The position numbers and the translations under genes are program-made. A stretch of DNA of 61,742 nucleotides from Alphaproteobacteria bacterium (lineage in GTDB: Bacteria; Pseudomonadota; Alphaproteobacteria; SMXQ01). The notes beneath the pieces were generated by a model. The model did not search any database. It was not told where the DNA came from and was given only the letters and a program-made list of their open reading frames with translations. The stretch lies in the NCBI GenBank assembly GCA_030831315.1, contig JAURLI010000053.1, forward strand, positions 1-61,742. The letters run 5' to 3'. Every line of letters begins with the position of its first letter. The first letter of the stretch is position 1. Of this stretch, positions 4,052 to 61,742 are shown piece after piece.

Positions 4052-4068
4052 GCAAAAGGAATCGCCGT

Positions 4069-6241: not shown

Positions 6242-6277
6242 GCTTTGCCGGGCCGGGCGGGAGCCCGCTGGCAGATC

Positions 6278-7456: not shown

Positions 7457-7462
7457 TCCTCC

Positions 7463-8683: not shown

Positions 8684-8699
8684 TTCGGCCTCCGTCGGG

Positions 8700-9659: not shown

Positions 9660-9681
9660 GTTCGCCTCCCTTCGGGGGCTG

Positions 9682-10035
9682 TCAGCCGCCGACCTTTTCG
9701 AGGGCTGCCTTCACCTTTGCATCGAAGCCGATCAGCAGCACGCCTTTCGCCTCGATGACCGGGCGCTTGATCAGCGTCGGTTCCTTCAGCGCCAGCGCCG
9801 CCGCCGATTTCGCATCGAGCCCTTCGCGGGTCTTTTCCGGTATGCCGCGCCACGTGGTCGAACGCCGGTTGATCACGGTTTCCCAGCCCAGCGCTGAAAT
9901 CCACGACGATACTTTCTTCGCGTCGATGCCGTCGGCGCGCAGGTCGTGGAAACGGTGTGCGAGGCTTTTCTGCGCCAGCCACTTCAACGCGGCCCGGCAG
10001 GTGTCGCAGGTCTTGATGCCGTAAAGCGTGATCAT
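9682..10035 (-). CDS. ArsC/Spx/YffB-family thioredoxin-fold protein
   Basis: A 117-residue thioredoxin-fold protein. It begins MITLYGIKTCDTCRAALKWL, with a C-x-x-C (CDTC) near residues 10-13, and carries LIKRPVIEAKG, the RP motif of the ArsC/YffB family. Length and the CxxC fit the YffB subgroup better than true arsenate reductases, which have one N-terminal catalytic Cys. There is no ars context. It is first in a leftward run with the threonine-degradation genes; a link in function is not evident. Confidence 0.85.
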   Translation of the reverse strand: MITLYGIKTCDTCRAALKWLAQKSLAHRFHDLRADGIDAKKVSSWISALGWETVINRRSTTWRGIPEKTREGLDAKSAAALALKEPTLIKRPVIEAKGVLLIGFDAKVKAALEKVGG

Positions 10036-10122
10036 GTCATTGGCCCTCCCGTGGGCCGGCTTTCATTGTAGCCGGGTCGGCGGGGCGAGGCTACGATGGC
10101 CGCCGGTTCTCCGGGAAACATC

Positions 10123-10932: not shown

Positions 10933-10937
10933 TCGCC

Positions 10938-12038
10938 ATGGCCGGGCACCGCATAGAAAAGATCGAACTTTTCCCCGTGCGGATTCCCTATCCGCGTCCG
11001 ATGCAATGGGCGTCGCTGTCCGAGACCGCCGCCGATTACATGATCCTGCGGCTGACCACCGACACGGGGCTGTCGGGCATCGCCGAAGGCACGGTCAAGA
11101 CGACATGGAACGGCACGACGTTGCGTTCGCTTGCCGTCGTGTTCGAGGAATTGTTCGAGGGGAACCTGAAGGGCCTCGACGTCGATGATGAAAAAGCCAT
11201 CGGCGCCCTGTGGCGTCCCAAGGAACACAGCCTGGCCAAGGCGATGATCGACGTTGCCCTGTGGGATATCCGCTCGCAGGCGGCGGGGCGCGCCCTGTGG
11301 CGCATCTGGGACGGCGCGCCCGAAGCAGCCGTGTCCTGGGTCGTGACCCGCCAGGCGCCGGCCAAGATGGCGGGCGAGGCGGCCGACGTGGTCGGGCGTT
11401 ACGGCTTTGGCACGCTCAAGGTCAAGGGCGGGCAGGGCATCGAAACCGACGTTGCGGCGCTTGGCGAAATCCGCGCCGCCGTGGGCGATGGCGTGCGCAT
11501 CTATGTCGATCCCAACCAGGCTTACGATACCGCAGAGACCCCCGGCTATTGCCGCAGGCTTGCCGATCTCGGCGTCATCATGGTGGAAGATCCCTGTCCC
11601 TATCTGCCTGACGCCGCGTTCACCCGCCTTCAGGAGACCTGCGTCCTGCCGCTCTTGGTGGATGGCACCTGCCGCGATTTTGCCGCGGCCAGCCTTTATG
11701 TCGAACGCGGGGCGCGGGCACTCAATCTCAAGCTTCTGAAAGCGCGCGGCTACAGCGAGAACTGGCGCATCGTCCGCCATGCGACGGAACGCGGGGTCGA
11801 CGTCAACATCGGCCTGTTCGGGGAAAGCTCGCTCGGTGCGCTCGCTGCCTTGCAGATTTCGGCGGCGCTGCCCAAGGGGCGCTACAACCTGCCCTCCGAA
11901 GCGACCCTGTTCCTGCTGCTGCCCGATGAATTCGTCCATCAGCCGCTTGCGATCGAGGGTGGCCGCATTCGCCTGCCGGATCGTCCCGGTTTTGGCTGGA
12001 TGGTCGATTGGGACAAGGTCCGGCGTCTCGCCCCTTGA
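10938..12038 (+). CDS. Mandelate racemase/muconate lactonizing enzyme-like protein
   Basis: A 366-residue enolase-superfamily protein. The catalytic K-x-K is K161/K163 (LKVKGG) and metal ligands are D191 (VDPNQ), E217 (MVEDP) and D242 (LLVDGT), the MLE-subgroup layout. ATG 10938 follows a GGGG nine bases upstream. A TTG at 10929 overlapping the previous stop is the alternative. Likely reactions are racemisation, cycloisomerisation or dehydration of a carboxylate. It may work with the acyl-CoA synthetase 68 bases downstream, but the substrate is unknown. Confidence 0.87.
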   Translation: MAGHRIEKIELFPVRIPYPRPMQWASLSETAADYMILRLTTDTGLSGIAEGTVKTTWNGTTLRSLAVVFEELFEGNLKGLDVDDEKAIGALWRPKEHSLAKAMIDVALWDIRSQAAGRALWRIWDGAPEAAVSWVVTRQAPAKMAGEAADVVGRYGFGTLKVKGGQGIETDVAALGEIRAAVGDGVRIYVDPNQAYDTAETPGYCRRLADLGVIMVEDPCPYLPDAAFTRLQETCVLPLLVDGTCRDFAAASLYVERGARALNLKLLKARGYSENWRIVRHATERGVDVNIGLFGESSLGALAALQISAALPKGRYNLPSEATLFLLLPDEFVHQPLAIEGGRIRLPDRPGFGWMVDWDKVRRLAP

Positions 12039-12106
12039 GCGGAGACGTTGTCGCACCGCCCCAAGCCCCCTTATGATGGCGGGAATAATAAAGGGGAGGA
12101 CGTGTT

Positions 12107-14281
12107 TTGGCCGCCAGTCAGGATTTTCAGGACAGCATTCGCAAGGTGGGCGCACTTCTGGCGCCGCGCAACGTGGTGATCGTCGGCGCGTCCGACAAGC
12201 CCGGCAACTGGACGCCGCGCGTCCATCGCAATCTGGGGCGTTACGGCTTCAAGGGCGGCATCTATCCCCTCAACCCCGGCCGCGACGAGGTCTGGGGCGA
12301 GACCTGCTACCGCGACTTCGCCTCGCTCCCCGAAAAGCCCGATCACCTGGTTCTGCTGGTGCCCGCCAAGATGGTTCCCGATGTGCTGCGCGACGGTGCG
12401 GCGGCGGGTGCGCGTAGCGCCACGGTGATGACATCTGGTTTCGAGGAAACGGGGGACGAAAAGGGCCGCGCTTTGGGGCGCGAATTGCGCAAGGCCATTG
12501 CGGAAACGGGGCTCGCCATTTCGGGGCCCAACTGCATGGGCAACATGACGGCGTCCCATTCCTTCGTTACCAACCCCGATGACCGCCCCCAGAACGTGAC
12601 ACCGGGGCAGGTCGCCATCATCGGCCAGTCGGGCGGCATCGCCACCGCGATCAAGCGCACGCTGGAAGAACGCGGCATCGTCGCGGGAACGCTGATCACC
12701 AGCGGCAACGAAGCCGGCCTGAACATGGCCGACTACATTCATTACTTCGCCGCGGATCCCGATACGAAGGTCATCGTCTGTTACCTCGAATCCGTCCGCG
12801 ACCGCGAAAAGTTTCTTGCGGGTTGTCGTGCAGCACGGGCGGCGGGCAAGGCGGTGGTGGTGGCGAAACTCGGTACTTCCCAGGCGGGAAGGGCGGCGGC
12901 GCTCGCCCATACCGGGGCGCTCGCCGGATCGGCTGCCGCCTTCGATGCCGTCGCCGGGGCGGCGGGGGCCATCCGGGTCACCACCCTCGATGACGTGGTC
13001 GAGGTGGTCGAATATGTCATTCACGCGAAGATCCCCAAGGGACCCGGGGTGGGCGTCATTACCCTGTCGGGGGGCTTGCGCGGTCTTCTGATCGACGCGG
13101 CGGAGCGCAACGGCGTCCGTTTTGCCGAGATCAGCGACGATACACGCGCCAAGCTTCAGGCCTTCATGGGCGCGGGCAGTGTCGTCGGCAATCCGCTCGA
13201 TGGCGGCTACGCCGTGCTGTCGAGCCAGGAAAACTACCTGAAGTCGATCGAGATCATGCTGGCCGATCCGTCCATAGATATCCTGCTGATGCAGGAAGAA
13301 CTGCCGCGCGAGGCGGGATCGGCGCGGAAAGAGTCCAATCTCCGCGCTTCGGAAAAGCTCGCCGCGGCGGCGGGCAAGCCGATCTGCTACGTGTCGATGA
13401 TTTCCTACGGGCTTACCGATTACGCACGCGACATTCATGCGGAATTGCCGCACCTGCCGTTCCTGCAGGAAGCGGACAAGGCCATGCGCGCGGTGCGCGC
13501 GATCACCGCCCATGCGACCGCTTCGGCGCCGCAGGGGACATCCGAAGCGATTCCGGTGGCGGCGCGGTCCATCGTCGAGTCCTTGCGCGACAGGGCGGCG
13601 CGGGCGAGCGAACCCGTGACGCTGAGCGAGCCCGAATCGAAAGCCCTGATTGCCGCCTATGGCATTCCGGTGGCCCGCGACGAAGTCGCCGCCGATGCCG
13701 AGGCCGCCGTGGCCGCGGCGGACCGCATCGGTTATCCCGTCGTTCTCAAGGCGGTTTCAGCCGACCTGCCGCACAAGACCGAAGCCGGCGCCGTGCTCGT
13801 CGGCCTGAAGGACGCCGCCGCGGTGCGCGAGGGCTTCGCGCGAATCCTCGCCAATGTCGCCAGGGCGAAACCGAGCCTGAAACTCGATGGCGTCATGGTG
13901 GCGGAGATGGTCTCGGGCGGCATTGAGCTGGCGCTCGGCATCGCCAACGATCCCGAAGTCGGCCCCGTCGTCATGTTCGGCGGCGGCGGCACGGCGCTGG
14001 AGCTTTACGGCGACGTCGCCTTTGCCGATCCCGGCCTTGACGCTGCCCGTGCCCGGGCGCTGATCGACCGCACCAAGGCCGCGAAACTTCTCGACGGCTG
14101 GCGCCGCCAGCCCGCCCATGACAGGGCGGCGGTAGAGGCGGCGCTAGTGGCGCTGGGCCGCCTTGCCCGCGACATGGGCGATTGTCTCGCAGCCATCGAC
14201 GTCAACCCGTTCGTTGCCCGCGGTCAGGGACAAGGTGGTGCCGCCCTCGATGCGCTGGTGGTGCTGCGTCCCGGGGCTTAG
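12107..14281 (+). CDS. ADP-forming acetate/acyl-CoA ligase, fused alpha-beta type
   Basis: A 724-residue NDP-forming acyl-CoA synthetase. Domains in order are the CoA-binding Rossmann domain (about 15-140, VVIVGASDKPGNW), two succinyl-CoA-ligase-like domains (about 150-460) with the phospho-histidine H268 in LAHTGALAG, and a C-terminal ATP-grasp domain (about 500-724). The TTG start at 12107 is well supported by AAGGGGAGGA six bases upstream. The enzyme interconverts acid plus CoA plus ATP with acyl-CoA plus ADP plus phosphate. Bacterial members act on acetate, phenylacetate, pimelate or sulfo-acids. It probably ends a pathway fed by the enolase-superfamily enzyme upstream. Confidence 0.9.
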   Translation: MAASQDFQDSIRKVGALLAPRNVVIVGASDKPGNWTPRVHRNLGRYGFKGGIYPLNPGRDEVWGETCYRDFASLPEKPDHLVLLVPAKMVPDVLRDGAAAGARSATVMTSGFEETGDEKGRALGRELRKAIAETGLAISGPNCMGNMTASHSFVTNPDDRPQNVTPGQVAIIGQSGGIATAIKRTLEERGIVAGTLITSGNEAGLNMADYIHYFAADPDTKVIVCYLESVRDREKFLAGCRAARAAGKAVVVAKLGTSQAGRAAALAHTGALAGSAAAFDAVAGAAGAIRVTTLDDVVEVVEYVIHAKIPKGPGVGVITLSGGLRGLLIDAAERNGVRFAEISDDTRAKLQAFMGAGSVVGNPLDGGYAVLSSQENYLKSIEIMLADPSIDILLMQEELPREAGSARKESNLRASEKLAAAAGKPICYVSMISYGLTDYARDIHAELPHLPFLQEADKAMRAVRAITAHATASAPQGTSEAIPVAARSIVESLRDRAARASEPVTLSEPESKALIAAYGIPVARDEVAADAEAAVAAADRIGYPVVLKAVSADLPHKTEAGAVLVGLKDAAAVREGFARILANVARAKPSLKLDGVMVAEMVSGGIELALGIANDPEVGPVVMFGGGGTALELYGDVAFADPGLDAARARALIDRTKAAKLLDGWRRQPAHDRAAVEAALVALGRLARDMGDCLAAIDVNPFVARGQGQGGAALDALVVLRPGA

Positions 14282-14359
14282 GGGCGAGGCTTTACGGGGC
14301 GCTTCCGGGGAGCTATAGCAACGCCACCCTCTTTGCCCCCTGAAAGGGACCGCCTGCCC

Positions 14360-15541
14360 ATGAAAACGATCCGCCTCAAGCCCGGAAAGGACCGCGCGCT
14401 CCTGCGCCGCCATCCCTGGGTGTTTTCCGGCTCGATCATGTCGGGTGGTGGGGATCGTGGCGAAACCGTGCGGGTCGAAGCCGACGATGGACGCTTCCTC
14501 GCCTGGGGTGCCTTCAGCCCGACATCGCAGATCAGGGTGCGCGCCTGGTCTTTTGACGAGGCCGAGCGCATCGACGATGCCTTTTTCGCCCGCCGCATTG
14601 CCGAAGCCATTTCCTACCGCGGCCGCCTCGCCATCGAGTCCGATGCCTGCCGCCTGATCCACGGTGAAGCAGACGGGTTGCCCGGGCTGATCGTCGATCG
14701 CTACGGCGATGTCCTTGTCGCGCAGTTTCTTTCCGCCGGTGCGGACCGCTGGCGCGAGACGATCTGCAAGGCCCTCGCCGAGGCGACGGGCATTTCACGT
14801 ATCCACGAGCGTTCCGATTCCAATACCCGCCAGCTCGAGGGACTGGACGCCATTGTCGGCTGGATCACGGGCGCTGGTGCAAGCGAAGTCGAAATCCACG
14901 AGCACGGCTGGCGCTTCGTTGTCGACGTGGCGGAAGGCCACAAGACCGGTCATTACCTCGACCAGCGCGACAACCGCGCGATCTTCCGCGACTGGGTGAG
15001 GAATGCGGGCCTGCGGACGGTGCTCAACTGCCACGCCTATACCGGCGGTTTTGCCATCGCCGCGCTGGCTGGCGGTGCGGACCGCGTGATTTCGGTCGAT
15101 TCATCCAAGCCCGCGATTGCCCATGCCGAACGTCATGTGGCGCTCAATGGTTTTGAGTCGTCGAAGGCCGAGTTCCTGGCCGCCGACGTCAATGCCACGC
15201 TGCGCACGATGATCAAGGACGGCAAGACCTTCGATGCCATCGTTCTCGATCCGCCGAAATTCGCCGCCTCCGCGCATCATGTCGAGCGCGCGGCGCGCGC
15301 CTACAAGGACATCAACCGGCTCGCGCTCAAGCTGCTTAATCCCGGCGGTGTGCTGCTGACGTTTTCATGTTCGGGCGCGGTCAATGCCGACCTTTTCCAT
15401 AAAATCATCGCATCGGCCGGCATGGAATCGGGCGTGGATGGCTACATCGCGCTCCGTCTTGAAGCCGCGCCCGATCATCCGACCACCCTCGCGTTTCCCG
15501 AAGGTGAGTATCTCAAGGGCCTGCTCGTCGTCCGCCGTTAG
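14360..15541 (+). CDS. rlmI: RlmI-like 23S rRNA (cytosine-C5) methyltransferase
   Basis: A 393-residue SAM-dependent methyltransferase. It has an N-terminal PUA domain (about 1-70, RHPWVFSGSI), an intermediate domain, and a Rossmann methyltransferase domain with DQRDNR, the AYTGGF SAM loop, LDPPKFA and the nucleophile C337 in TFSCSG. This order and length match RlmI (m5C1962 of 23S rRNA). ATG 14360 is chosen because the PUA domain begins at once. It is a housekeeping gene with no clear link to its neighbours. Confidence 0.88.
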   Translation: MKTIRLKPGKDRALLRRHPWVFSGSIMSGGGDRGETVRVEADDGRFLAWGAFSPTSQIRVRAWSFDEAERIDDAFFARRIAEAISYRGRLAIESDACRLIHGEADGLPGLIVDRYGDVLVAQFLSAGADRWRETICKALAEATGISRIHERSDSNTRQLEGLDAIVGWITGAGASEVEIHEHGWRFVVDVAEGHKTGHYLDQRDNRAIFRDWVRNAGLRTVLNCHAYTGGFAIAALAGGADRVISVDSSKPAIAHAERHVALNGFESSKAEFLAADVNATLRTMIKDGKTFDAIVLDPPKFAASAHHVERAARAYKDINRLALKLLNPGGVLLTFSCSGAVNADLFHKIIASAGMESGVDGYIALRLEAAPDHPTTLAFPEGEYLKGLLVVRR

Positions 15542-15691: not shown

Positions 15692-17671
15692 ATGTACGAA
15701 GGCGTTCTTGAAGGCCTCATGGGCATCCTGACATGGAAGTCCATGATGCTGATGGTTATTGGCGTCGGCATAGCCAGTTTTTTCGCAGCCGCGCCTGGTA
15801 TTGGCGGTCTGCTGCTTCTGTCGCTGCTGATGCCCTATGCCATCACCCTGACCCCGTATGAATTCATCGCCCTGATCATAGGGGCCGCGACCGTCGGCAA
15901 TACCGCCAATACGTTTACATCGGTCCTCGTGGGTGTGCCCGGCGGTTCGGGATCCCAGGCGACGGTGCTCGACGGCTATCCGATGGCCAAGAAGGGCGAG
16001 GCCAATCGCGCCTTCGGCGCGGCTTTTCTGGGATCCGCGGTCGGCGCCGTGATCGGCGCGGCGACGTTCATCCTGACCCTGCCGATTTTCACGCCGCTGG
16101 TACTGTCGCTGGGGTCGCCCGAATTCCTGATGCTGGTTCTCTGGGGCCTGTCGGCGGTGTCGGTTCTCGGCGGCAAGGAACCCATCAAGGGCCTGACCTG
16201 TGCCGTGATCGGCATGGGCATCGCCCTGATCGGGACGGACACGCGCACCGGTATCGAGCGTTTTACCTTCGGCACGGGCTACCTGGAATCGCCGATATCG
16301 GTTGTCATCATCGCCATGGGCATCTTCGCCATGCCCGAGATGTTCGAGTTGATGGTCAAGCGCACCCGCATCGCCGAGGTCCAGTCCCTCGGCAAAGGCC
16401 TCGTTGAAGGCATGAAGGATGTGTTCCGGCATTGGTGGCTGGTGGTGCGCTCCTCAATGGTCGGTGTGTGGGTCGGCATCCTGCCCGGGCTAGGTTCTTC
16501 GGTCGCCGACTGGTTCGCCTATGCCCATGCGGTGCAGACGGAAAAGAACCGCGAGAATTTCGGAAAGGGCGACGTGCGCGGCGTGCTGGCGCCGGAAAGC
16601 TCAAACAACGCGAAGGAAGGCGGCGACCTGATCCCGACGCTGCTGTTCGGCATTCCCGGCGGCAGCTCGATGGCGATCATCCTGATCGGCCTCTATGCGG
16701 TCGGCATCCAGACCGGGGAGGCGATGCTGACGACACAGCAGCCCTTCATGTTTGCGATGATATGGACGCTGGTCATCGCCAATTTCATGGCAACTGGACT
16801 GGCGCTGATTTTCGCACCGCAATTCTCGAAGGCCTGCACGGTCGCTTATTACTATCTGGTGCCGGCGATTTTGATGTTCTGCCTGGTGGGCGCATTCTCG
16901 GTCAATCTCGACCTTCCAGATATCTATACCTTCGTTGTGTTCACCATCATCGGCATCGTCCTCAAGCGCTACGGCTGGCCGCGCCCGCCATTGCTTGTCG
17001 CCGTGGTTCTGGGGCCGCAGGTGCAACAGTATCTTTGGCTTTCGGTGGATCGCTACGGCCTTGAATGGTTGGGCCACCGCGGCGTCATCCTGCTGTTGCT
17101 GCTGATCATCGCCACCATCGCCTGGCCGATCTACCGCCAGCGCAAATCGCGCCAGAAGGCGATGGATATGGATCTTGTCCACGAGGTTCGCCGCCCGATG
17201 GAAAAGGGCAGCATGACCGTTGCCCTTGGTCTTGCGGTGATTTTTGGCTTGATGATGTGGCAGGGGACGCACTGGCCCCTCAGGGCTTCGATCGCTGTCT
17301 ATTTCGTGGGAATCCTGGGCCTGATGCTGGTGGCGATGCAGGTGACCCGCGATGCCATAACTCTTGCGAGTATCAGGCGGGGCGAGGGCGAGGCGGTCGT
17401 ACCCTATACGGGCGAGGAGCGTCACCGCGAATTGGTCGCGGCACTTTGGGTGGCGGGACTGGTCGGTTCGGTTCTTCTTGTCGGCTTTCACCTGACCTTT
17501 TTGGTGTTCCCGCTGTTGTACGCCTGGGCGCATGGCGGCAACTGGCGGCAGGCATTGTGGACGGCCTTCGGCGGCACGGCGCTGATCGTCTTCGTGTTCG
17601 ACTATATGTACAATGCAATCTGGCCGAAGCCGCCACTGACGGGTTGGCTGTATACCGCCTTAGGCATGTAA
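15692..17671 (+). CDS. tctA: Fused TctA-TctB permease of a tripartite tricarboxylate transporter
   Basis: A 659-residue integral membrane protein. Residues 1 to about 490 are TctA, with AAAPGIGGLLLLSLLMPY near residue 30, NTANTFTSVLVGVPGG and LDGYPMAKKGEANRAF, and many hydrophobic helices. TctA is normally about 500 residues. The remaining 160 or so (about 500-659) form about four more helices resembling the small subunit TctB. No separate tctB or tctC is adjacent. It would carry organic acids by ion-coupled transport together with TctC-type binding proteins, of which three are encoded elsewhere in the window. The start follows AAGGGGGCCAGG. Confidence 0.87.
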   Translation: MYEGVLEGLMGILTWKSMMLMVIGVGIASFFAAAPGIGGLLLLSLLMPYAITLTPYEFIALIIGAATVGNTANTFTSVLVGVPGGSGSQATVLDGYPMAKKGEANRAFGAAFLGSAVGAVIGAATFILTLPIFTPLVLSLGSPEFLMLVLWGLSAVSVLGGKEPIKGLTCAVIGMGIALIGTDTRTGIERFTFGTGYLESPISVVIIAMGIFAMPEMFELMVKRTRIAEVQSLGKGLVEGMKDVFRHWWLVVRSSMVGVWVGILPGLGSSVADWFAYAHAVQTEKNRENFGKGDVRGVLAPESSNNAKEGGDLIPTLLFGIPGGSSMAIILIGLYAVGIQTGEAMLTTQQPFMFAMIWTLVIANFMATGLALIFAPQFSKACTVAYYYLVPAILMFCLVGAFSVNLDLPDIYTFVVFTIIGIVLKRYGWPRPPLLVAVVLGPQVQQYLWLSVDRYGLEWLGHRGVILLLLLIIATIAWPIYRQRKSRQKAMDMDLVHEVRRPMEKGSMTVALGLAVIFGLMMWQGTHWPLRASIAVYFVGILGLMLVAMQVTRDAITLASIRRGEGEAVVPYTGEERHRELVAALWVAGLVGSVLLVGFHLTFLVFPLLYAWAHGGNWRQALWTAFGGTALIVFVFDYMYNAIWPKPPLTGWLYTALGM

Positions 17672-53853: not shown

Positions 53854-54549
53854 TTAGACGGTAAGTGTTTTTCCCAGAAAATCGAGGCTCCGGGCGCGGG
53901 CCCGGCGGGCGGCTTCAGGGTGGTGGCGGGGCGTGCGCTTGGGGTTGTCGAAGCCGTGCAGGGCGCCCGGGTAGATGTGAAAGGGCACATCGGGGTGGCG
54001 GGCGCGGAAGACCGCGATCTTTTCCGCATCCAGCGCGTCGTCGCGGTCGCCGACATGGCATTCGATGGGGCAGCGGGCATCGAGGTCGAGGTAGCGATTG
54101 ATCTCGCCGCCGTAATAAGACACCGCCGCATCGAAATGCGAAGTGCAGGCGGCAAGCCAGGCGAGCGATCCGCCGAAACAGAATCCGACGATACCGACCT
54201 TGCCGGCCCGCGCGCAGAAATCGTGCGCGGCTTCCAAATCCATCACCGCTTTCGACCAGTCGTAGTTGCGGTAAAGCTGCTTGGCGCGCAGGTTGTCGGC
54301 GTCCGAGTATTCGAAGGTCAGGCCCGGTTGAACACGATCATAAAGGCTGGGTGCCACGGCCAGATATCCGTGTCCCGCATACCAGGCGCAGACGTCGCGG
54401 ATGTAGGAATTGACGCCGTACATCTCCTGGGCGATGACGAGGCCTGCGCGCGGGCTCCCCGACGGCGATGCCATCCAGGCGGAGAGTTCATGGCCGTCGG
54501 TGGCCCTGAGCCGGATTTCTCCGGCGGCGGGGGGCGCGTTGCCGGTCAT
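53854..54549 (-). CDS. Dienelactone hydrolase-family protein
   Basis: A 231-residue alpha/beta hydrolase. The triad C124 (VGFCFGG), D171 (GDRDD) and H198 (GALHGF) matches dienelactone hydrolases, which use Cys rather than Ser. QEMYGVNSYIRDVCAWYA is the family oxyanion region. ATG 54549 is eight bases after the SDR stop, so the two are likely co-transcribed. Dienelactone or a related lactone or ester from aromatic breakdown is the expected substrate. Confidence 0.88.
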   Translation of the reverse strand: MTGNAPPAAGEIRLRATDGHELSAWMASPSGSPRAGLVIAQEMYGVNSYIRDVCAWYAGHGYLAVAPSLYDRVQPGLTFEYSDADNLRAKQLYRNYDWSKAVMDLEAAHDFCARAGKVGIVGFCFGGSLAWLAACTSHFDAAVSYYGGEINRYLDLDARCPIECHVGDRDDALDAEKIAVFRARHPDVPFHIYPGALHGFDNPKRTPRHHPEAARRARARSLDFLGKTLTV

Positions 54550-54557
54550 CGCCGGGC

Positions 54558-55370
54558 CTAGAGGTGGTTGACCCCGCCCTCGCAGGCGATGGTCTGGCCG
54601 GTGACAAAGTCGCTTGCCGACGACATCAGGAAAATGATGGTGCCGACGAGGTCTTCCGGCATCTGCAGGCGCGGGATGGCGGCCTGTCCGGACATTTTCT
54701 TTTCGCGGGCCTGCCAGTGGCTTTCGGGCATGGTGGCGCCGATGGTCTCGCTCTTGGTCAGGCCGGGGCAGACGGCGTTGACGGTGATGCCTTCGGGGCC
54801 GAGATCGTGGCTGATCGAACGGGTGAAACCGACGACGCCTGCCTTCGACGTCGTGTAGTGCAGCCGCCCGGTGGTACCCGTCAGCCAGGTGGAAGACGAG
54901 ATGTTGACGATCTTGCCGTAGCCCTGCGCCTTCATCTGTCCATGCACGGCCTTGCAGCAGTTGAAGATGCCCTTGAGATTGACCGCCATCAGCCGGTCCC
55001 ATTCGTCTTCGGGGATTTCTTCCCAGTTCTTGCGCTTCGGAATCTTGGCATAGAGGGCGGCGTTGTTGACCAACCCGTCGATGCGTCCGAACGTGTCGAC
55101 GGCGGCCTTGGCCAGTCGTTCGCAGGCGGCAATGTTTGAAACATCGGTTTCGACGAAGACGGCATGCCCGCCGGTCTTGTTGCTGGCCGCTTCGATTTCG
55201 GCAGCCAAGGCCTTGCCCGCGCCGGCCTCGATGTCGGCGATCACGACATTGGCGCCGACCTCGCCCAGCGCCTGGGAATAGACCTTGCCGATGCCGACGG
55301 CGCCGCCGGTAACGATGATCGTGCGCCCGGCGATATCGAACAGGCCACGGGCGGTAAAGGGGCTGGTCAT
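54558..55370 (-). CDS. Short-chain dehydrogenase/reductase
   Basis: A 270-residue classical SDR. The cofactor motif is VTGGAVGIGK, followed by NNAA, the catalytic Ser in NISSSTW and Y-x3-K in HYTTSK, and AVCPGLTKSE. GGGAGAAA precedes the ATG. It is first in a leftward pair with the dienelactone hydrolase and divergent from a TctC-type gene 182 bases away. The substrate is unknown. Confidence 0.88.
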   Translation of the reverse strand: MTSPFTARGLFDIAGRTIIVTGGAVGIGKVYSQALGEVGANVVIADIEAGAGKALAAEIEAASNKTGGHAVFVETDVSNIAACERLAKAAVDTFGRIDGLVNNAALYAKIPKRKNWEEIPEDEWDRLMAVNLKGIFNCCKAVHGQMKAQGYGKIVNISSSTWLTGTTGRLHYTTSKAGVVGFTRSISHDLGPEGITVNAVCPGLTKSETIGATMPESHWQAREKKMSGQAAIPRLQMPEDLVGTIIFLMSSASDFVTGQTIACEGGVNHL

Positions 55371-55446
55371 CTGCGTTTCTCCCTGTTGTTCGTTGCCTTG
55401 GTGGTAGCGCTGAAATGGCCGTCCCGCAAGGGGCCCGCGCCTCCGA

Positions 55447-55476
55447 TTGACAACTGGCCGGGTCGGGCGGAAGCTT
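55447..55476 (+). promoter_or_regulatory. Candidate promoter of the TctC-like gene
   Basis: A perfect TTGACA at 55447-55452 is followed after 17-18 bases by the weak AAGCTT/GAAGCT, about 80 bases before ATG 55553. The -10 match is poor. Confidence 0.3.
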
Positions 55477-55552
55477 CACCAAAAGGGATCGGGGCGGGGC
55501 CGCAGGGGCCCGCCGAATGGCCGGAAAACCGGCAGAACAGGGGAGGTGGACT

Positions 55553-56614
55553 ATGCGTGGGTTTACAGGGGTGGCCTTTTCTTTGGGCCTTATCGTGGCC
55601 TTGGGGGCGCCGCCGGCGGCGCAGGCCGCGGATTTCTACGAGGGCAAGTCCGTGTCCATTACCGTCGGCTCCAGCGCCGGCGGCGGCTACGACACCTACG
55701 CGCGGTTCCTCGCGCGGTCGTGGGGCAAGTTCATTCCGGGCCGCCCCAATTTCGTCGTCAAGAACATGCCGGGCGCCGGCAGCCTGAAGGCGAGCAATTA
55801 CATCTACAACGTCGCGGCCAAGGACGGTACCGAGGTCGGCGCCATCCAGCAGGGCATGTTCTTCGAACCGCTGTTCAAGGTGATGGGCACCGGGCGCGAA
55901 GCCAAGTTCGATGCCCTCAAGTTCGGCTGGATCGGCGCGGTCGTGAAGGACCAGGCCGTGATGGTCGTCTGGCACGCAACGCCCTTCAAGTCGCTTTCCG
56001 AAATCATGGGCAAGGAAGTGCTTTCCGGCTCGGCGGGCGCCACGACCAACTACGCCACCTATCCGCGCCTGATGAACGCGACGATGGGCACCAGCATCAA
56101 GGTCATCGAAGGTTACAACGGCACGTCCTCGATCACGCTGGCGCTCGAGCGCGGCGAGTTGCAGGCCATGACCGGCTGGGATTTCTCGTCCCTCGCGAGC
56201 AGCAAGGGCCGCTGGCTGCAGGACAAGAAGGTGCGCGTCATCGTCCAGTTCGGCGCGAAGAAGATCCCCGAGCTGCCGGATGTGCCGCTGGCGCGCGATT
56301 ATGCGAGCTCGCCGCTCAATCGCGACGTTCTCGACCTGATTACGCTCCGCCAGGACATCGGCCGTCCTTATGTGGCCCCTCCGGGCCTGCCGAAGGATCG
56401 CCTCGCAACGCTGCAGAACTCCTTCTGGACGATGCTGCATGATGCGGCCTTCCTGAAGGATGCCGCCAAGGCGCGCATCGAAATTTCGCCGACCAGCGCA
56501 AAAGACTCGATGGAAATCGTTCGCAAGGGCTATGCGGCCTCGCCTGAGGTCGTGGCCAAGGCGCGCGAGGTCCTGGTTGCGAAGGCACGCGAAGGCAAAA
56601 AGAAGAAGAAATAG
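55553..56614 (+). CDS. TctC/Bug-family periplasmic solute-binding protein
   Basis: A 353-residue secreted binding protein, paralogous to those at 1650 and 60823. The signal peptide (GVAFSLGLIVALGAPPAAQA) is followed by ADFYEGKSVSITVGSSAGGGYDTYARFLA and IPGRPNFVVKNMPGAGS. The C-terminus ends in a run of Lys (GKKKKK), an odd, very basic tail. GGGGAGG precedes ATG 55553. No permease is adjacent. It lies within a block of catabolic genes, so an aromatic or alicyclic acid is a reasonable guess for the ligand. Confidence 0.88.
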   Translation: MRGFTGVAFSLGLIVALGAPPAAQAADFYEGKSVSITVGSSAGGGYDTYARFLARSWGKFIPGRPNFVVKNMPGAGSLKASNYIYNVAAKDGTEVGAIQQGMFFEPLFKVMGTGREAKFDALKFGWIGAVVKDQAVMVVWHATPFKSLSEIMGKEVLSGSAGATTNYATYPRLMNATMGTSIKVIEGYNGTSSITLALERGELQAMTGWDFSSLASSKGRWLQDKKVRVIVQFGAKKIPELPDVPLARDYASSPLNRDVLDLITLRQDIGRPYVAPPGLPKDRLATLQNSFWTMLHDAAFLKDAAKARIEISPTSAKDSMEIVRKGYAASPEVVAKAREVLVAKAREGKKKKK

Positions 56615-56629
56615 ACACTGGCAATGAAG

Positions 56630-56664
56630 AACCGCCGGCCCCTGTACGGGACCGGCGGTTTTTT
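56630..56664. terminator. Terminator after the TctC-like gene
   Basis: AACCGCCGG and CCGGCGGTT form a 9-bp stem, extended inside by CCC/GGG, and followed by TTTTTT. It lies between the rightward binding-protein and leftward quinone oxidoreductase genes. Confidence 0.85.
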
Positions 56665-56675
56665 CATGCGTGTAC

Positions 56676-57689
56676 TCAGCCGAGCGTGGGGTCGAGGATA
56701 ACCTTGCCCGGGACCGAGCCCGCTTCGATCAGGCGGTGGGCTTCGCGGATCTGGCTCAGCGGGAAGACCTTTTCGATATTGACCTTGATCTTGCCCTTGC
56801 CGGCGGCGTCCAGCGCCTGGCGCACGTTTTCCATGGTCGAGCCGGCACTGCCCATGATCGTGATTTTCGAGTCATAGAGCTTGAAGCAATCGAGCGGCAC
56901 GACCGGGCCGCCATGGGCGCCCGCCGTTACCAGCCGGCTGTCGTGGGCCATCGCCGCCAGGGCCTTGGGGAAGGTCTTGGGATTGGCGATGTTGTCGTAG
57001 ACGAGATCGACGCCGTGGCCGCCGGTGATCTCCATGATCTCCTTGGTCAGGTCCTGCTCGCCGTAATTGACGACGTAATCGGCGCCGAGATCCTTGCCGA
57101 TCTGCGCCCGGTCGGCGGAGCCAGCGGCGCCGATGACCTTGGCGCCCGCCATCTTGGCGATCTGGACGCCGATGGTGCCGAGGCCGCCCGAGCAGCCCAT
57201 CACCAGCACCCAGTCCCCGGCCGTCACCTTGCCCATCGTATACATGAGATGGAACGCGGTGGGGCAGTGACGGATGACGACCGATGCTTCGTGGTAGTCG
57301 AGCTGGTCGGCGATCGGGAAGCACATGTTGGCGTGCGCTACCACGAATTCGGCATCGCCGCCCCAGCGGTTGACGCCGAGCATGCCGCGCTCGCCGGGGC
57401 CGGGCCGGGACAGGACCGACACGCGGGCGCCGATGGGCGGCATGGTGACGCCTTCCACCGGCTCGCCGTGGGCGACGACTTCGCCCGACGGATCGACGCC
57501 GAGGATCAGCGGCAGGATCGGGTTGCGCTGCATCTGGGTGCCGGCGCGCACGCCGCAATTGAGCACGCGGTTGACGGTGGTGGCATGCACCTTGACCAGG
57601 ACTTGCCCGCGCCCGGGCTTGGGCGTTTCAACGTCCTCGTACTTGAGAACTTCGGGCGGGCCGAACTCGTGAAGAATGGCTGCTTTCAT
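56676..57689 (-). CDS. Quinone oxidoreductase-like medium-chain dehydrogenase
   Basis: A 337-residue MDR protein. MKAAILHEFGPPEVLKYEDV is the usual start, VHATTVNRVLNCGVRAG replaces the zinc-binding Cys/GHE region, and MGCSGGLGTIGVQIAKMAG is the NADPH loop. It has no structural zinc lobe, so it is probably zinc-free. It is last of four leftward genes, seven bases after the FAH gene. It may reduce an enone or oxidise an alcohol; the substrate is unknown. Confidence 0.85.
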   Translation of the reverse strand: MKAAILHEFGPPEVLKYEDVETPKPGRGQVLVKVHATTVNRVLNCGVRAGTQMQRNPILPLILGVDPSGEVVAHGEPVEGVTMPPIGARVSVLSRPGPGERGMLGVNRWGGDAEFVVAHANMCFPIADQLDYHEASVVIRHCPTAFHLMYTMGKVTAGDWVLVMGCSGGLGTIGVQIAKMAGAKVIGAAGSADRAQIGKDLGADYVVNYGEQDLTKEIMEITGGHGVDLVYDNIANPKTFPKALAAMAHDSRLVTAGAHGGPVVPLDCFKLYDSKITIMGSAGSTMENVRQALDAAGKGKIKVNIEKVFPLSQIREAHRLIEAGSVPGKVILDPTLG

Positions 57690-57696
57690 CGGTCGG

Positions 57697-58638
57697 TCAC
57701 TTCGACTTGACGAAACTGGTCTTGAGGGTGCCGAGCTCGCCGATGGTGGTGACGATCTTGTCCCCGGCCTTGAGGTAAAGGCCGCGGCCCTTGCCAACGC
57801 CCGCCGGCGTGCCGGTGGTGATGACGTCGCCCGGGGCCAGCGTCAGGTGCTGGCTCAGGTAGGCGATCTGTTCTTCGATCCGGTACCACATGTCGCCGGA
57901 ATTGCCGTTCTGCATCTGATCGCCGTTGAGCCAGAGCTGGATCGGCTGGTTATAAATGTTCTTCACGTATTCGCGCGGCGTGATCCACGGCCCCATCGGG
58001 GTCGAGCCGTCCCAGTTCTTGCGGCGGAAACGGTCGCGGCGGAAGGCGTGGTCCTGCGGGGTCTTGGCCTCGGCGGCGCTGGGCCCGCGGATCGACATGT
58101 CGTTGAGGATGGTGAAGCCCGCGACGTACTTGAAGGCGTCTTCCTTCTTTACCCAGAAGGCAGGCTTGCCGATGACCACGGCGACCTCGGATTCCCAGTC
58201 GATGGCAGTGGACGTACGGGGCAGGTGAATTTTCGCCCCTTCGCCGACGACGACCTGGCGCGGCGTCTTGAGGAAGAACACCGGGGCGTTCAGCTCCTTG
58301 TCGGGCATCGGCGCGGTGTTGCCCATTTCTGCGCGGTGCGCCACGTAGTTCGACGCGATGCAGAAGATGTTGCCAGGGTACATGATCGGCGGCAGCAGGC
58401 TGGTACGGCTCTTCTGCTTGCAGGCGGCCTTGTGCTTGCCGGCGGCGACTTCGGCCGCGACCTTCTTCATCCACTTGTTGGCGGTCGCCCATTTCTCAAG
58501 GAGCGTCAGGGTGGAGGTGGTATCCACCGGCGCCTTCTTGACCTTGGACAGATCGACGACCTTGTCGCCGACGAGAATGCCGGGCGTGGCTTTGCCCTTG
58601 TCTCCCTTGAATGTAAGCAGGCGGTACTGAGTGGCCAT
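57697..58638 (-). CDS. Fumarylacetoacetate hydrolase-family protein
   Basis: A 313-residue FAH-fold enzyme, different from the one at 25697. IFCIASNYVAHRAEMG opens the core, TAIDWESEVAVVIGKPA supplies acidic metal ligands, and LNDMSIRG and DVITTGTPAGVGKG complete the site. GGGAG precedes ATG 58638. It lies between VOC and quinone oxidoreductase genes. Hydrolysis of an acylpyruvate or isomerisation/decarboxylation of a ring-cleavage product is likely. Confidence 0.87.
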   Translation of the reverse strand: MATQYRLLTFKGDKGKATPGILVGDKVVDLSKVKKAPVDTTSTLTLLEKWATANKWMKKVAAEVAAGKHKAACKQKSRTSLLPPIMYPGNIFCIASNYVAHRAEMGNTAPMPDKELNAPVFFLKTPRQVVVGEGAKIHLPRTSTAIDWESEVAVVIGKPAFWVKKEDAFKYVAGFTILNDMSIRGPSAAEAKTPQDHAFRRDRFRRKNWDGSTPMGPWITPREYVKNIYNQPIQLWLNGDQMQNGNSGDMWYRIEEQIAYLSQHLTLAPGDVITTGTPAGVGKGRGLYLKAGDKIVTTIGELGTLKTSFVKSK

Positions 58639-58685
58639 ACGTCTCCCCCTTGGTGAGATTTTTCGTTGTTGGGTAATAAGGCTGT

Positions 58686-59945
58686 CTATTCCCACGGACC
58701 GAGGAACGGCTCGCCCATGTAGCTGTCGGGCTGGCCCGGCACGGTTTCCGGCCAGACGCCGGGTTCCACCCGGGGCCGCGCGGAGGCGGGCCTGGGTTTG
58801 CCGTCCCAGCCGATCTGTTCCATGTAGTGGTAGAACTGCACGGCGTGGCCGTCCGGATCGTGGACGACGAAGTGATAGTCGATGCCGGGGAACAGTTCGT
58901 GCGGCAGTTCGCGCACCTTGCAGCCCTTCTCGATCAGGAATTCACGCGCGTTGCGCAGCTGGCGATAGTTTGCCACCTGAAGGCCGATGGAGAAGTTCGT
59001 CGTATGCGAAGACAGCCCGAGTTCTTCGCGCAGCGCGATCGGGTAGAGCGCCACCGCGTGATGTTCGGTATTGGCGCGCAGGAATTCGCAGGTGTGTCCC
59101 TTGTAGACGACCGTTTCCGTCGGCGTGAAACCGAGCATTTCCGTGTAGAAACGCTTGGCCGCGGCGACGTCCTTCATGAACAGGCGCACGGGCCCCATGC
59201 GCACGATCTTGAACGGGCGCGCAAGCAAGATGCCGTCGACGTCATGGGTCGCGGGCGGGCGCTTGGTGTCGCGAAAGCCCTTGGTGAAGTCGACGCCGCG
59301 GGCAAGTGCGTCCGTGACTTCCTGGTATTCGCTGATCTGGGGCATGGGCGGCGCCTGGCGGAAGGCGCGGTCGTGCATTTCCCAGGGCTTGGAATAGCCG
59401 TCCCAGCCGATCTGCTCGATCCCGTAATATAGCTCGCTGACGTTACCGTCGGGATCAGCGATGTAGGTGTGCCAGTTCGATCCCGGCATGTCGCGGCCAG
59501 AGCGTACGGTCGGCACCTGCTTGGCGGCGAACCACTTGATGGCGTCGGAAATCTGGCCGAGGCTGCCGCACTGCCAGGTGATCTGGTTGGTGGTGATGCC
59601 GTCGGGCCAGCGCGCTTTGCCATCGGCGACCTCGCGCATGGAGCGGTTGAACAGCACCATGGCGTGATGGTCGGAGCCGTAGCGCGTGAACACGCCGATC
59701 GGCGGTCCCTTGACCTGCGCGAGCTGTTCTTTCGACAAACGATCACTCGCGTCGCGGATATCGGTGACGACGAAGCCGAGAAGGTCGGTGTAAAACCGGA
59801 TGCCTTCCTCGATGTTGTTCAGGTTGAAGCCGAAATGGCCGAGCCGGACGATCCGGAACGGCCGGTCGAGGGCCACGCCACCGACCGAAAATTTCCCGTC
59901 GCCGGTCGGCCGTGCATAGAAATCCGAGAAAGCCGCATCGTCCAT
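58686..59945 (-). CDS. Internally duplicated VOC-superfamily protein
   Basis: A 419-residue protein made of two similar halves. Half 1 (29-183) and half 2 (244-382) both open R-P-F-(R/K)-I-V-R-x-G and close EQIGWDG. Each half holds two VOC modules, the size of a complete extradiol dioxygenase domain. Half 1 keeps H37, H93-H94, H159 and E171; half 2 has P252 and Q370 in place of the first His and the Glu. Only half 1 looks able to bind metal. It lies in a leftward run with FAH and quinone oxidoreductase genes. A ring-cleaving or isomerase role is possible. Confidence 0.84.
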   Translation of the reverse strand: MDDAAFSDFYARPTGDGKFSVGGVALDRPFRIVRLGHFGFNLNNIEEGIRFYTDLLGFVVTDIRDASDRLSKEQLAQVKGPPIGVFTRYGSDHHAMVLFNRSMREVADGKARWPDGITTNQITWQCGSLGQISDAIKWFAAKQVPTVRSGRDMPGSNWHTYIADPDGNVSELYYGIEQIGWDGYSKPWEMHDRAFRQAPPMPQISEYQEVTDALARGVDFTKGFRDTKRPPATHDVDGILLARPFKIVRMGPVRLFMKDVAAAKRFYTEMLGFTPTETVVYKGHTCEFLRANTEHHAVALYPIALREELGLSSHTTNFSIGLQVANYRQLRNAREFLIEKGCKVRELPHELFPGIDYHFVVHDPDGHAVQFYHYMEQIGWDGKPRPASARPRVEPGVWPETVPGQPDSYMGEPFLGPWE

Positions 59946-60116
59946 ATTGTCCCCCCTCTGCGTCCAAAGCGGGCGGCCTTGAAGGCCGCTCTCTCCGCCC
60001 ACGGGCGGTCTTTGGTCCATGGCTTGATATTGCGCCAAACCTGTACCGTGTCAACCGGCGCGCCGGACAACTGAAAGCCCCGAAACGTCTGAAAATCAGG
60101 CGTTGGGGGCCGGGGA

Positions 60117-60650
60117 TCAGGCCGGGTCGGGCCGTTCGCTGTTGTAACCCATGCTGCTGCCCCGTTTCTCGAAGTTTTCGGGGTCTGGATCGAGGCCGTG
60201 GCCAAGGGTCAACCGGTTCATGAAATTGAACCGGCAGATGACCAGGATGGCATCATGCAGGGCCTGCTCGTCCCAGCCTGCCGCGTAGACGGCATCGGCG
60301 TCGGCCTGGGAAATGGCGCGGGGATCGAGGGTCAGGACCTTGGCGAAACGCATGATCGGCTTGAGCCGGTCGTGGATCTTCAGCGTATCGACGTCATCGC
60401 AGATGTTCTCAAAAATGACGGGATCGGCGCCGAGGTTGCGCGCCACCGCCGAATGACCGCCGTAGCAATAGTCGCAGCGGTTGATGTGCGAGACATAGGC
60501 CGCGATGGTTTCGCGTTCGGCCGGGGTGAGGGCCGAATCGCCACGCATGATGATGCGTCCCATTTCGCCCTGCGAGCGGCGGAGTTCGGGTTTCATGCCG
60601 AAGATTTCCCGCACATTTGCCTTAGGTGGCAATTTCTTCATGAAAGGCAT
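60117..60650 (-). CDS. AhpD/carboxymuconolactone decarboxylase-family protein
   Basis: A 177-residue alkylhydroperoxidase-like protein. The core LTPAERETIAAYVSHINRCDYCYGGHSAVA contains the redox pair C59-x2-C62 and H66, as in AhpD and peroxidase-related members. IMRFAKVLTLDPRAIS follows. ATG 60650 is chosen, with GGAGA upstream. It is the first of four leftward genes, followed after 171 bases by the VOC gene. A peroxidase role or repair of oxidised intermediates fits the CxxC better than decarboxylation. Confidence 0.84.
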   Translation of the reverse strand: MPFMKKLPPKANVREIFGMKPELRRSQGEMGRIIMRGDSALTPAERETIAAYVSHINRCDYCYGGHSAVARNLGADPVIFENICDDVDTLKIHDRLKPIMRFAKVLTLDPRAISQADADAVYAAGWDEQALHDAILVICRFNFMNRLTLGHGLDPDPENFEKRGSSMGYNSERPDPA

Positions 60651-60822: not shown

Positions 60823-61742
60823 ATGAAAACCGCAAAGTCCCTTGCGTTCGCACTGGCTTGCGCCGGTGGCGTGTTTGCAGCCGCCGATACGGCTTCGGCC
60901 GATGCCATCGCGGACTTCTACAAGGAAAACAGATTCAACCTGGTCATCGGCTATTCGCCGGGCGGCGGGTTCGACCGTGGCGGGCGCATCGTCGCCAAGC
61001 ACATCGTCCAGTACATCCCCGGACAGCCGACCATCGTCACGCAGAACATGCCGGGTGGCGGCAGCATGCGGGCGCTCAACTGGCTTTACGTCAAGGCGCC
61101 CAAGGACGGGACGGCGATGGCGCATTTCCATCCGGCCGCGGTGCGCGAAGACCTGATGGGCGGTACTGGCGTCGAGTTTGATGCGCGCAAGTTCTACTGG
61201 ATCGGCAGCTACAACCGCGATCGTGCAGTGACCTTCGTGCGCTCGGACAGCGGCATCAAGACCATTCAGGATGCCATGAAGAAAGAGGTCGTCCTCGGCG
61301 CCACGTCGCCGCGTTCGGGTGGCGGCGTCTATCCGCGCGTCGTGAACGCCATACTCGGCACCAAGTTCAAGGTCATTGTGGGCTACGGTTCCACCGGCGA
61401 AAGCACGCTGGCCATGGAGCGCGGCGAGGTGCAGGGCATCGGGTCATGGACCTGGTCCCAGCTCAAGGTGCGCCAGGCCGACTGGGTCAAGAACAAGTTC
61501 GTCAACGTGCTGCTGCAGCTTTCCGTCAGCAAGCACCGCGACCTGCCCGACGTGCCGACGCCGCTTGACCTCGCCACCAGCGACGAGCAGCGCAAGCTCC
61601 TGCACATGATCTTCGTGTGGCAGGACATGGGCCGGCCGCTGGCCATGCCGCCGGGGACCGATCCGGTGCGCGGCAAGGTGATCCGTGCCGCTTTCGACAA
61701 GCTCATGACCGACAAGGCGTTCGAGAAGGACATCATCAAGGG
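60823..61742 (+). CDS. TctC/Bug-family solute-binding protein, 3' end outside window
   Basis: An open frame from ATG 60823 runs to the window edge without a stop (306 residues seen). CAGGAGAAGG precedes the start. A signal peptide (KSLAFALACAGGVFAAADTASA) is followed by ADFYKENRFNLVIGYSPGGGFDRGGRIVAK and IPGQPTIVTQNMPGGGS. It is the third member of this family in the window, about 40% through the usual loops shared with that at 55553. About 40 residues are probably missing. It is divergent from the AhpD-like gene. Confidence 0.88.
   Translation, partial: MKTAKSLAFALACAGGVFAAADTASADAIADFYKENRFNLVIGYSPGGGFDRGGRIVAKHIVQYIPGQPTIVTQNMPGGGSMRALNWLYVKAPKDGTAMAHFHPAAVREDLMGGTGVEFDARKFYWIGSYNRDRAVTFVRSDSGIKTIQDAMKKEVVLGATSPRSGGGVYPRVVNAILGTKFKVIVGYGSTGESTLAMERGEVQGIGSWTWSQLKVRQADWVKNKFVNVLLQLSVSKHRDLPDVPTPLDLATSDEQRKLLHMIFVWQDMGRPLAMPPGTDPVRGKVIRAAFDKLMTDKAFEKDIIK

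What the first reader, a model, noticed from the sequence alone, without database searches (positions are those of the whole stretch)
53854..60650. Probable new ring-degradation locus
Within 7 kb are dienelactone hydrolase, SDR, quinone oxidoreductase, FAH hydrolase, duplicated VOC and AhpD-like proteins, plus two TctC-type binding proteins. Each family is common in aromatic or alicyclic acid breakdown, but the set matches no pathway I recognise. There is no transcription regulator in the block.
Basis: inference. Interest (0 to 1): 0.5.

Follow-up and report, generated by a model that had tools for sequence, protein, structure and literature searches.

The report
CfdE-type aromatic ring-cleavage gene block
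A small gene block, partly kept across a family of little-known bacteria, is built around a distant cousin of an enzyme reported to open the aromatic ring of an insecticide residue, so it probably opens the ring of some natural compound, although the compound and the route are unknown.

Summary
The genes are real and mostly correctly named. Corrections: one two-domain VOC protein, one AhpD-like protein, the second TctC lies just past the stated end and is cut by the contig end, and the block cannot be one operon. The recurring core is QOR-FAH-VOC, contiguous in 5 of 11 genomes of the family; all 11 carry some full-length VOC relative. DLH-SDR is accessory; TctC1 and AhpD are variable. In 4 of 4 plasmid records with a full-length VOC relative a FAH gene is the immediate neighbour. 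Two are the carbofuran-degrader plasmids of Sphingobium CFD-1 and CFD-2, where the VOC (47% identical) sits where gene order puts CfdE, the reported ring-cleavage enzyme. So "ring degradation" is supported by homology and linkage; "matches no pathway" is only partly right, because the core resembles the cfd module, while substrate and full route stay unknown. Unexpected: the metal-site residues map to the N-terminal domain, and one canonical metal histidine is glutamine in 26 of 26 family members compared (histidine in 11 of 11 canonical-type proteins compared). A new variant of a known kind, of moderate interest.

The parts
53854..54549 (-). Dienelactone-hydrolase-family protein (231 aa), Cys motif GFCFGG
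   Evidence: Pfam PF01738 133.9 bits; beside SDR also in G001 (cut by contig end), G005 and G010; motif read by eye
54558..55370 (-). Short-chain dehydrogenase/reductase (270 aa)
   Evidence: Pfam PF13561 186.2 bits; 78-90% identical syntenic genes in G001, G005, G010
55517..56614 (+). Divergent TctC-type periplasmic binding protein (true start possibly 55553 or 55595)
   Evidence: PF03401 26.4 bits by itself, cut-off 27, 27.2 with neighbours in frame; at this place in G001 and G010, not in G005
56676..57689 (-). NAD(P)H:quinone oxidoreductase-like / enone reductase-like protein, nearest the PIG3 family (337 aa)
   Evidence: PF00107 105.9 bits; TIGR02824 180.9 bits, below its 296.8 cut-off; next to FAH in 7 of 11 family genomes
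57697..58638 (-). FAH-family protein (313 aa); keeps the HxxE (H101, E104), ExE and Asp positions of solved relatives
   Evidence: PF01557 208.8 bits; aligned to 1gtt, 8sky, 8gsr; roles of these residues recalled
58686..59945 (-). Two-domain VOC protein (419 aa), CfdE-type probable ring-cleavage dioxygenase; metal-site positions H37, Q121, E171 in the N-terminal domain
60117..60650 (-). AhpD/CMD-family peroxidase-related protein (177 aa) with CxxC...H motif
   Evidence: TIGR01926 89.3 bits, above its 81.8 cut-off; follows VOC also in G005; motif read by eye
60823..61740 (+). Divergent TctC-like binding protein, cut by the contig end
   Evidence: no Pfam match; 60-65% identical relatives near the VOC in G005 and G010

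Best explanation
The core (QOR-FAH-VOC) is a chromosomal aromatic ring-opening module. The VOC protein opens a dihydroxylated (catechol- or hydroquinone-type) ring. The FAH enzyme cleaves a C-C bond of, or isomerises or decarboxylates, the resulting keto-acid. The quinone oxidoreductase keeps the substrate reduced or reduces the enone product. DLH and SDR, where present, would handle a lactone and a side-chain alcohol or ketone, and the TctC proteins would bind a carboxylated substrate. Shown: family assignments, gene order, VOC-FAH linkage, homology to the VOC at the CfdE position. Inferred: ring cleavage by this protein, the order of steps, the roles of QOR, DLH, SDR and TctC, and the substrate.
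For: VOC is 47% identical over 96% of its length to the VOC proteins of the Sphingobium CFD-2 and CFD-1 plasmids, which lie between a FAH and an alpha/beta hydrolase gene. PMC4498121 (whole text) calls CfdE of KN65.2 a new member of the glyoxalase/bleomycin/dioxygenase family involved in carbofuran catabolism; PMC8292978 section 9 gives it (printed CdfE) ring cleavage in a proposed pathway. A FAH gene directly flanks the VOC in 4 of 4 plasmid records that cover at least 80% of the query (3 lineages) and lies within 5 kb in 3 of 3 f67 genomes; in the one annotated (G365) a TctC, a molybdenum-cofactor dehydrogenase and a LigB dioxygenase gene lie between. In R. koreensis FAH-VOC-SDR sits near an Fe-ADH-family and an intradiol dioxygenase gene. 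QOR-FAH-VOC are contiguous in 5 of 11 family genomes. The genome has about 5 LigB-family, 3 Ring_hydroxyl_A and 5 Acyl-CoA_dh_2 genes; these families are not specific (4, 4 and 9 of the 14 control genomes also match).
Against: No hydroxylase or regulator gene was called in the block. One canonical metal His is Gln and a second-shell His is Asp in 26 of 26 members compared, so the classical extradiol reaction is not guaranteed. The VOC scores far below NCBIfam cut-offs of extradiol dioxygenases (71 vs 321.4 bits for HpaD). G009 and G010 have no FAH between QOR and VOC; at E <= 1e-60 no FAH relative was found in G009 or G004, and the best in G010 and G008 are 45% and 40% identical. In G003 and G007 QOR-FAH stand without VOC. 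The VOCs of G002 and G006, though beside QOR-FAH, do not fall in the window protein's clade (that fork is weakly supported). No FAH match lay near the VOC in 3 of 3 f105 genomes. The structure prediction failed (mean pLDDT 39.4). I saw no primary paper proving CfdE activity; the proof I recall could not be opened.
Confidence: 0.6

Rival explanations
1. The VOC protein is not a dioxygenase but a metal-dependent isomerase, lyase or glyoxalase-like enzyme acting after ring cleavage or on a non-aromatic keto-acid; FAH then cleaves the product.
For: Q121 replaces a canonical metal His and D152 a second-shell His. VOC enzymes with a Gln metal ligand exist (human glyoxalase I, recalled). Rhodococcus D-6 uses a different, 211-aa VOC-type dioxygenase (IppB) in a cluster that also holds a FAH and an unexplained 421-aa protein; whether that protein is of this family is untested.
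Against: The literature seen assigns CfdE to ring cleavage. H37, E171, the base-like H94 and Y161 are all kept.
Confidence: 0.25
2. The block is two or more unrelated units lying side by side: DLH-SDR, QOR-FAH-VOC, and drifting TctC and AhpD genes of a genome crowded with TctC genes.
For: TctC1, on the opposite strand, is absent between SDR and QOR in G005; AhpD follows VOC only in G000 and G005 of the genomes seen (in G009 the contig is too short to tell); DLH-SDR was not found beside QOR-FAH-VOC in G006, nor in the 2 kb visible in G002. The genome has 50 TctC matches, so two TctC genes near any locus are unremarkable.
Against: DLH-SDR stay next to QOR-VOC in G000, G001, G005 and G010, three genera.
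Confidence: 0.35
3. The block serves quinone or electrophile detoxification and redox defence (QOR, AhpD-like, glyoxalase-like VOC) rather than carbon catabolism; it lies next to suf.
For: A SufB relative lies near the block in G000 and G005 and near QOR-FAH in G003 and G007 (suf named by eye); AhpD-family match above cut-off.
Against: Plasmid and f67 relatives lie in catabolic-looking clusters with CoA transferases, enoyl-CoA hydratases or other ring-cleaving enzymes.
Confidence: 0.1

Closest known systems
cfd cluster of Sphingobium CFD-1/CFD-2 and Novosphingobium KN65.2 (CfdE, with neighbouring FAH)
   Same: Full-length homologous two-domain VOC (47%), FAH gene immediately adjacent, all eight listed active-site positions shared. 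That the plasmid VOC is CfdE follows from its family and gene order, partly recalled
   Different: Here on a 61.7-kb contig next to suf, with no hydroxylase, Abhydrolase_1-type hydrolase, CoA transferase or TetR gene in the block; QOR, DLH, SDR and TctC instead; FAH only 31% identical to the plasmid FAH; IS6100 flanks the pCFD-2-4 cluster
Type I extradiol dioxygenases (XylE, BphC, HpaD)
   Same: VOC superfamily, two domains, partly conserved active site (H37, H94, Y161, E171 align with XylE H153, H199, Y255, E265)
   Different: Metal-site residues in the N-terminal rather than the C-terminal domain; XylE H214 is Gln and H246 is Asp; scores far below curated cut-offs
HpaG/HpcE-type FAH enzymes of homoprotocatechuate degradation
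   Same: Best solved-structure sequence match of the FAH protein (1gtt); HxxE, ExE and Asp positions kept
   Different: 150.1 bits vs the 276.4-bit cut-off, so it is not HpaG itself
ipp cluster of Rhodococcus D-6 (2-isopropylphenol)
   Same: An extradiol dioxygenase, a FAH and an acetoacetyl-CoA synthetase gene in one induced cluster; the Leisingera VOC-FAH locus also has an acetoacetate-CoA ligase
   Different: IppB is a 211-aa HHE-type dioxygenase, not this 419-aa kind

Membership tests
CfdE-type VOC protein | full-length two-domain homology to the VOC at the CfdE position of pCFD-2-4/pCFD-1-4 | tested here: met
   47% over 96%
CfdE-type VOC protein | adjacent FAH gene | tested here: met
   47 bp between VOC and FAH; also 4 of 4 full-length plasmid relatives
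CfdE-type VOC protein | ring cleavage of a hydroxylated phenol | not testable with these tools
   needs an enzyme assay
carbofuran (cfd) catabolic cluster | group D hydroxylase CfdC and hydrolase CfdF in the cluster | tested here: not met
   none of the eight proteins is of the Acyl-CoA_dh_2 or Abhydrolase_1 kind; the DLH is a different family
Type I extradiol dioxygenase, canonical | 2-His-1-Glu metal triad | tested here: not met
   H37, Q121, E171 align with XylE H153, H214, E265; Q in 26 of 26 members; whether Gln binds metal, or H93 or H159 replaces it, is unknown
Type I extradiol dioxygenase, canonical | catalytic site in the C-terminal domain | tested here: not met
   the C-terminal domain has P252, S319, Q370 at the ligand positions; by alignment only, no structure
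Type I extradiol dioxygenase, canonical | score above a curated equivalog cut-off | tested here: not met
   HpaD 71 of 321.4; catechol 2,3-dioxygenase 52.9 of 320.2; BphC model 43.1 of 366.45
FAH superfamily | Pfam match and HxxE / ExE / D positions | tested here: met
   208.8 bits; alignments to 1gtt, 8sky, 8gsr
TctC (Bug) binding protein | Pfam PF03401 above cut-off | tested here: inconclusive
   TctC1 26.4 bits against 27 alone, 27.2 with neighbours; TctC2 no match

The most novel reading that the evidence does not exclude
CfdE-type proteins are a separate class of ring-opening VOC enzyme: two domains in permuted order relative to XylE/BphC, with the working metal site in the N-terminal domain and a His-Gln-Glu instead of a His-His-Glu triad. 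In this bacterial family the protein serves an old chromosomal route for a natural aromatic, part of a wider group of enzymes of which the carbofuran plasmids carry one branch.
Probability: 0.3. Interest if true: 0.6.

Novelty: new variant of a known kind. Interest (0 to 1): 0.4.

Why it matters
It links an insecticide-degradation enzyme (CfdE) to relatives in the main genomes of little-known bacteria, which bears on where pesticide ring-cleavage genes come from. It also points to a probable ring-opening enzyme family whose metal site departs from the textbook triad, which a single mutagenesis or crystal-structure study could test.

Tried and rejected
Structure prediction of the VOC protein from window + L032 gave mean pLDDT 39.4, so no fold search was run; the permutation and metal-site claims rest on profile alignments only. 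A scan of viral contigs for more relatives found none; the scan of genome contigs gave one locus. Reading FAH as the L-rhamnose-pathway hydrolase was rejected (148.7 bits vs cut-off 500). Reading AhpD as a true gamma-carboxymuconolactone decarboxylase is less likely because of its CxxC motif (read by eye, general knowledge). Two literature searches, for papers holding at least 4 of 5 terms on a Gln-ligand or domain-order variant of extradiol enzymes and on a FAH+VOC+QOR ring-cleavage cluster, found no paper; they cover only the open-licence library and those exact words. Permutation: the N-terminal half matches both canonical halves about equally (E 4.7e-15 to the N half, 4.5e-13 to the C half), while the C-terminal half prefers the canonical N-terminal half (3.6e-19 vs 5.9e-12). 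Against the PDB, the N-half profile prefers the C half of BphC (25.7 vs 8.2 bits) but the N half of HpaD 1f1r (12.8 vs 3.3). So permutation is suggested, not shown.

Limits of the comparisons: the 11 canonical-type proteins are XylE plus 10 that I picked from the 40 listed of 393 records; 5 of the 10 are annotated as catechol 2,3-dioxygenase, 2 as HpaD and 3 only as VOC family protein. The 26 members are not independent (CFD-1 and CFD-2 are near-identical; 19 of 26 form one clade of two families), and the six from f67/f105 are match ranges, not whole genes; these are all six outside-family places. The gene caller, trained on nine genes taken from the window, did poorly on G005, so G005 was read by tblastn.
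Full report
What is there. The window is a whole contig (C35) of a 2.7 Mb draft genome estimated 99.2% complete. A codon-based gene call and Pfam/NCBIfam give DLH 53854-54549 (-), SDR 54558-55370 (-), TctC1 55517-56614 (+), QOR 56676-57689 (-), FAH 57697-58638 (-), VOC 58686-59945 (-), AhpD 60117-60650 (-) and a TctC-like gene from 60823 (+) to the contig end. Gaps of 8 bp (DLH-SDR), 7 bp (QOR-FAH) and 47 bp (FAH-VOC) fit operons. TctC1 lies on the other strand between them, so at least three transcription units are likely (inference).

Conservation within the family. The VOC protein was searched in 61 genomes: 13 match. All 11 genomes of the window's family, which are all that are held, have a full-length relative (53-100% identity in that listing); the other two matches (G021, G032) are weak. 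Five of the 11 have two full-length copies (G000, G001, G005, G008, G010). In G000 the second copy lies beside PNPOx-like, DHDPS-like and Acyl-CoA_dh_2 genes. QOR-FAH-VOC are contiguous in 5 of 11: G000, G001 and G005 (FAH 69-91% for the latter two) and G002 and G006 (FAH 53%). In G009 and G010 QOR and VOC are adjacent without FAH. In G003 and G007 QOR-FAH stand near a SufB relative without VOC. DLH-SDR adjoin the block in 4 (G000, G001, G005, G010). TctC1 sits between SDR and QOR in 3 (G000, G001, G010) but not in G005. AhpD follows VOC in 2 (G000, G005). Some contigs end near the block (G009, G002, and G001 inside DLH), so these counts are lower bounds. A SufB relative (named by eye) lies near the block in G000 and G005 and near QOR-FAH in G003 and G007, which suggests one old chromosomal place (inference). 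Against a simple story: in the VOC tree the copies of G002 and G006 do not join the window's clade of five, though the fork that parts them is weakly supported (81/88).

Relatives outside the family. Among 385 genomes of the class the profile found 11 with a match at E <= 1e-40: 5 of the window's family (own genome included) and 6 of two other families, f67 and f105. In plasmids, 20 records match and 4 cover at least 80% of the query: Sphingobium CFD-2 and CFD-1 (47%), Leisingera M527 (45%) and Rhodococcus koreensis R85 (50%). In all 4 a FAH gene is the immediate neighbour. Leisingera has VOC, FAH, two quinone oxidoreductases, a TRAP transporter, an enoyl-CoA hydratase-related gene and an acetoacetate-CoA ligase. 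R. koreensis has FAH-VOC-SDR near an Fe-ADH-family and an intradiol dioxygenase gene. In 3 of 3 f67 genomes a FAH match lies within 5 kb, and in the one annotated (G365) a TctC, a molybdenum-cofactor dehydrogenase and a LigB gene lie between. In 3 of 3 f105 genomes no FAH match was seen. As a rough yardstick, with about nine FAH genes among an assumed 2,700 genes, a given gene would have a FAH neighbour by chance in about 1% of cases or less (my estimate; nine is the number of first-look candidates in G000). Searching plasmids with the window's FAH gave 1087 records; the tool ranked the Leisingera FAH, the one beside the VOC, first (38.6%), though a Rhizobium bangladeshense FAH has the higher bit score.

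Link to known biochemistry. On pCFD-2-4 the order is acyl-CoA-dehydrogenase-fold protein, FAH, VOC, alpha/beta hydrolase, enoyl-CoA hydratase, CoA transferase, then a DUF1330 gene and an FAD monooxygenase, with IS6100 on both sides. On pCFD-1-4 the FAH-VOC-hydrolase-hydratase-transferase run is the same, with an IS6100 upstream of FAH. PMC4498121 (whole text) states that CfdE of KN65.2 is a new member of the glyoxalase/bleomycin/dioxygenase family involved in carbofuran catabolism. PMC8292978 (section 9) gives the dioxygenase (printed CdfE) ring cleavage and says the KN65.2 pathway was proposed from genome annotation, transcription, plasposon mutagenesis and spent-medium analysis. I recall, but could not open (not held), Jiang et al. 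2022 in Appl Environ Microbiol, whose abstract as I remember it reports cfdC, cfdF and cfdE as verified, cfdE as ring-cleavage dioxygenase. That the plasmid VOC is CfdE follows from family and gene order; I saw no accession that says so. Of PMC12442392 (ipp cluster) I saw the abstract, sections 5, 12 and 17 and passages.

Active site. I aligned XylE from pWW0 and ten further proteins that XylE finds on plasmids (picked from 40 listed of 393 records) and compared their halves with the halves of the window family. XylE H153, H214 and E265 (metal ligands, recalled) and H246 and Y255 are identical in 11 of 11, H199 in 10 of 11. The window's N-terminal half has H37, H94, Q121, D152, Y161 and E171 at XylE 153, 199, 214, 246, 255 and 265; the C-terminal half has P252, H296, S319, L351, V360 and Q370 (the second set is converted from domain numbering by adding 228). 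In 26 family members H37, H93, H94, Q121, D152, H159, Y161 and E171 are all invariant, as are P252, H295 and H296, while 319, 360 and 370 vary. So the likely metal site is in the N-terminal half, with Gln where the compared enzymes have His. The C-terminal half resembles the canonical N-terminal half best, which suggests permuted domain order; the N-terminal half does not discriminate. H93 or H159 could be the missing ligand.

The other enzymes. FAH's best match among solved structures is HpaG (1gtt), and it keeps the HxxE (H101, E104), ExE and Asp positions (roles recalled). QOR is PIG3-like but under the cut-off. AhpD is above the cut-off of the peroxidase-related family. The genome has 50 TctC and 16 TctA matches, so a TctC near any locus says little. 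It has about 5 LigB-family, 3 Ring_hydroxyl_A, 5 Acyl-CoA_dh_2 and 9 FAD_binding_3 matches, but these families also match 4, 4, 9 and 14 of the 14 control genomes, so they only show that aromatic metabolism is plausible.

Source. The nearest relative (VOC 79-80% identical) is in MAG Dino_bin8 from a Centrosaurus fossil bone ([quoted passage not shown] That G001 is this MAG follows from the equal contig length (46,863 bases).

Verdict. The ring-degradation reading is likely (0.6) for QOR-FAH-VOC and less sure for the whole block. It is a new variant of the CfdE/FAH kind of module.

Noticed in passing
whole genome G000 (window contig C35): 50 TctC matches and 16 TctA matches in a 2.7 Mb genome; 7-21 TctA matches in each of 11 family genomes.
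   Followed up: partly
window 15692-17671: A long ORF (659 aa) containing a TctA match (C35:15743-16996) on the same contig.
   Followed up: no
L042 (G000:C49) 6073-9894: Second VOC of the same genome (55% identical) beside PNPOx-like, DHDPS-like and Acyl-CoA_dh_2 genes, with TctC genes nearby: a different CfdE-type locus.
   Followed up: partly
L050 (Rhodococcus koreensis R85 plasmid) 2245-14734: Cluster without annotation in the collection: LysR, CoA transferase, aldehyde dehydrogenase, FAH, CfdE-type VOC, SDR, Fe-ADH-family protein, intradiol dioxygenase.
   Followed up: partly
L033 (G001) 6855-10103: Within about 4 kb of the VOC in the dinosaur-bone MAG lie a TauD-family and a DEAD-helicase gene (Pfam) and another 283-aa gene; similar genes, by eye, follow QOR-FAH in G003 and G007.
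   Followed up: partly
   Followed up: no
Cupriavidus metallidurans CH34 megaplasmid NC_007974.2 1894502-1895962: A weak VOC relative (about 30%) lies about 100 bp from a FAH match (35%): the VOC-FAH neighbourhood may reach beyond full-length relatives.
   Followed up: no
G000:C71:316-1143: The strongest TctC match of the genome has one in-frame TAA stop.
   Followed up: no
PMC12442392 Table 1: The ipp cluster of Rhodococcus D-6 has an unexplained 421-aa ORF (orf2562) beside an extradiol dioxygenase and a FAH gene; whether it is a CfdE-type protein was not tested.
   Followed up: no
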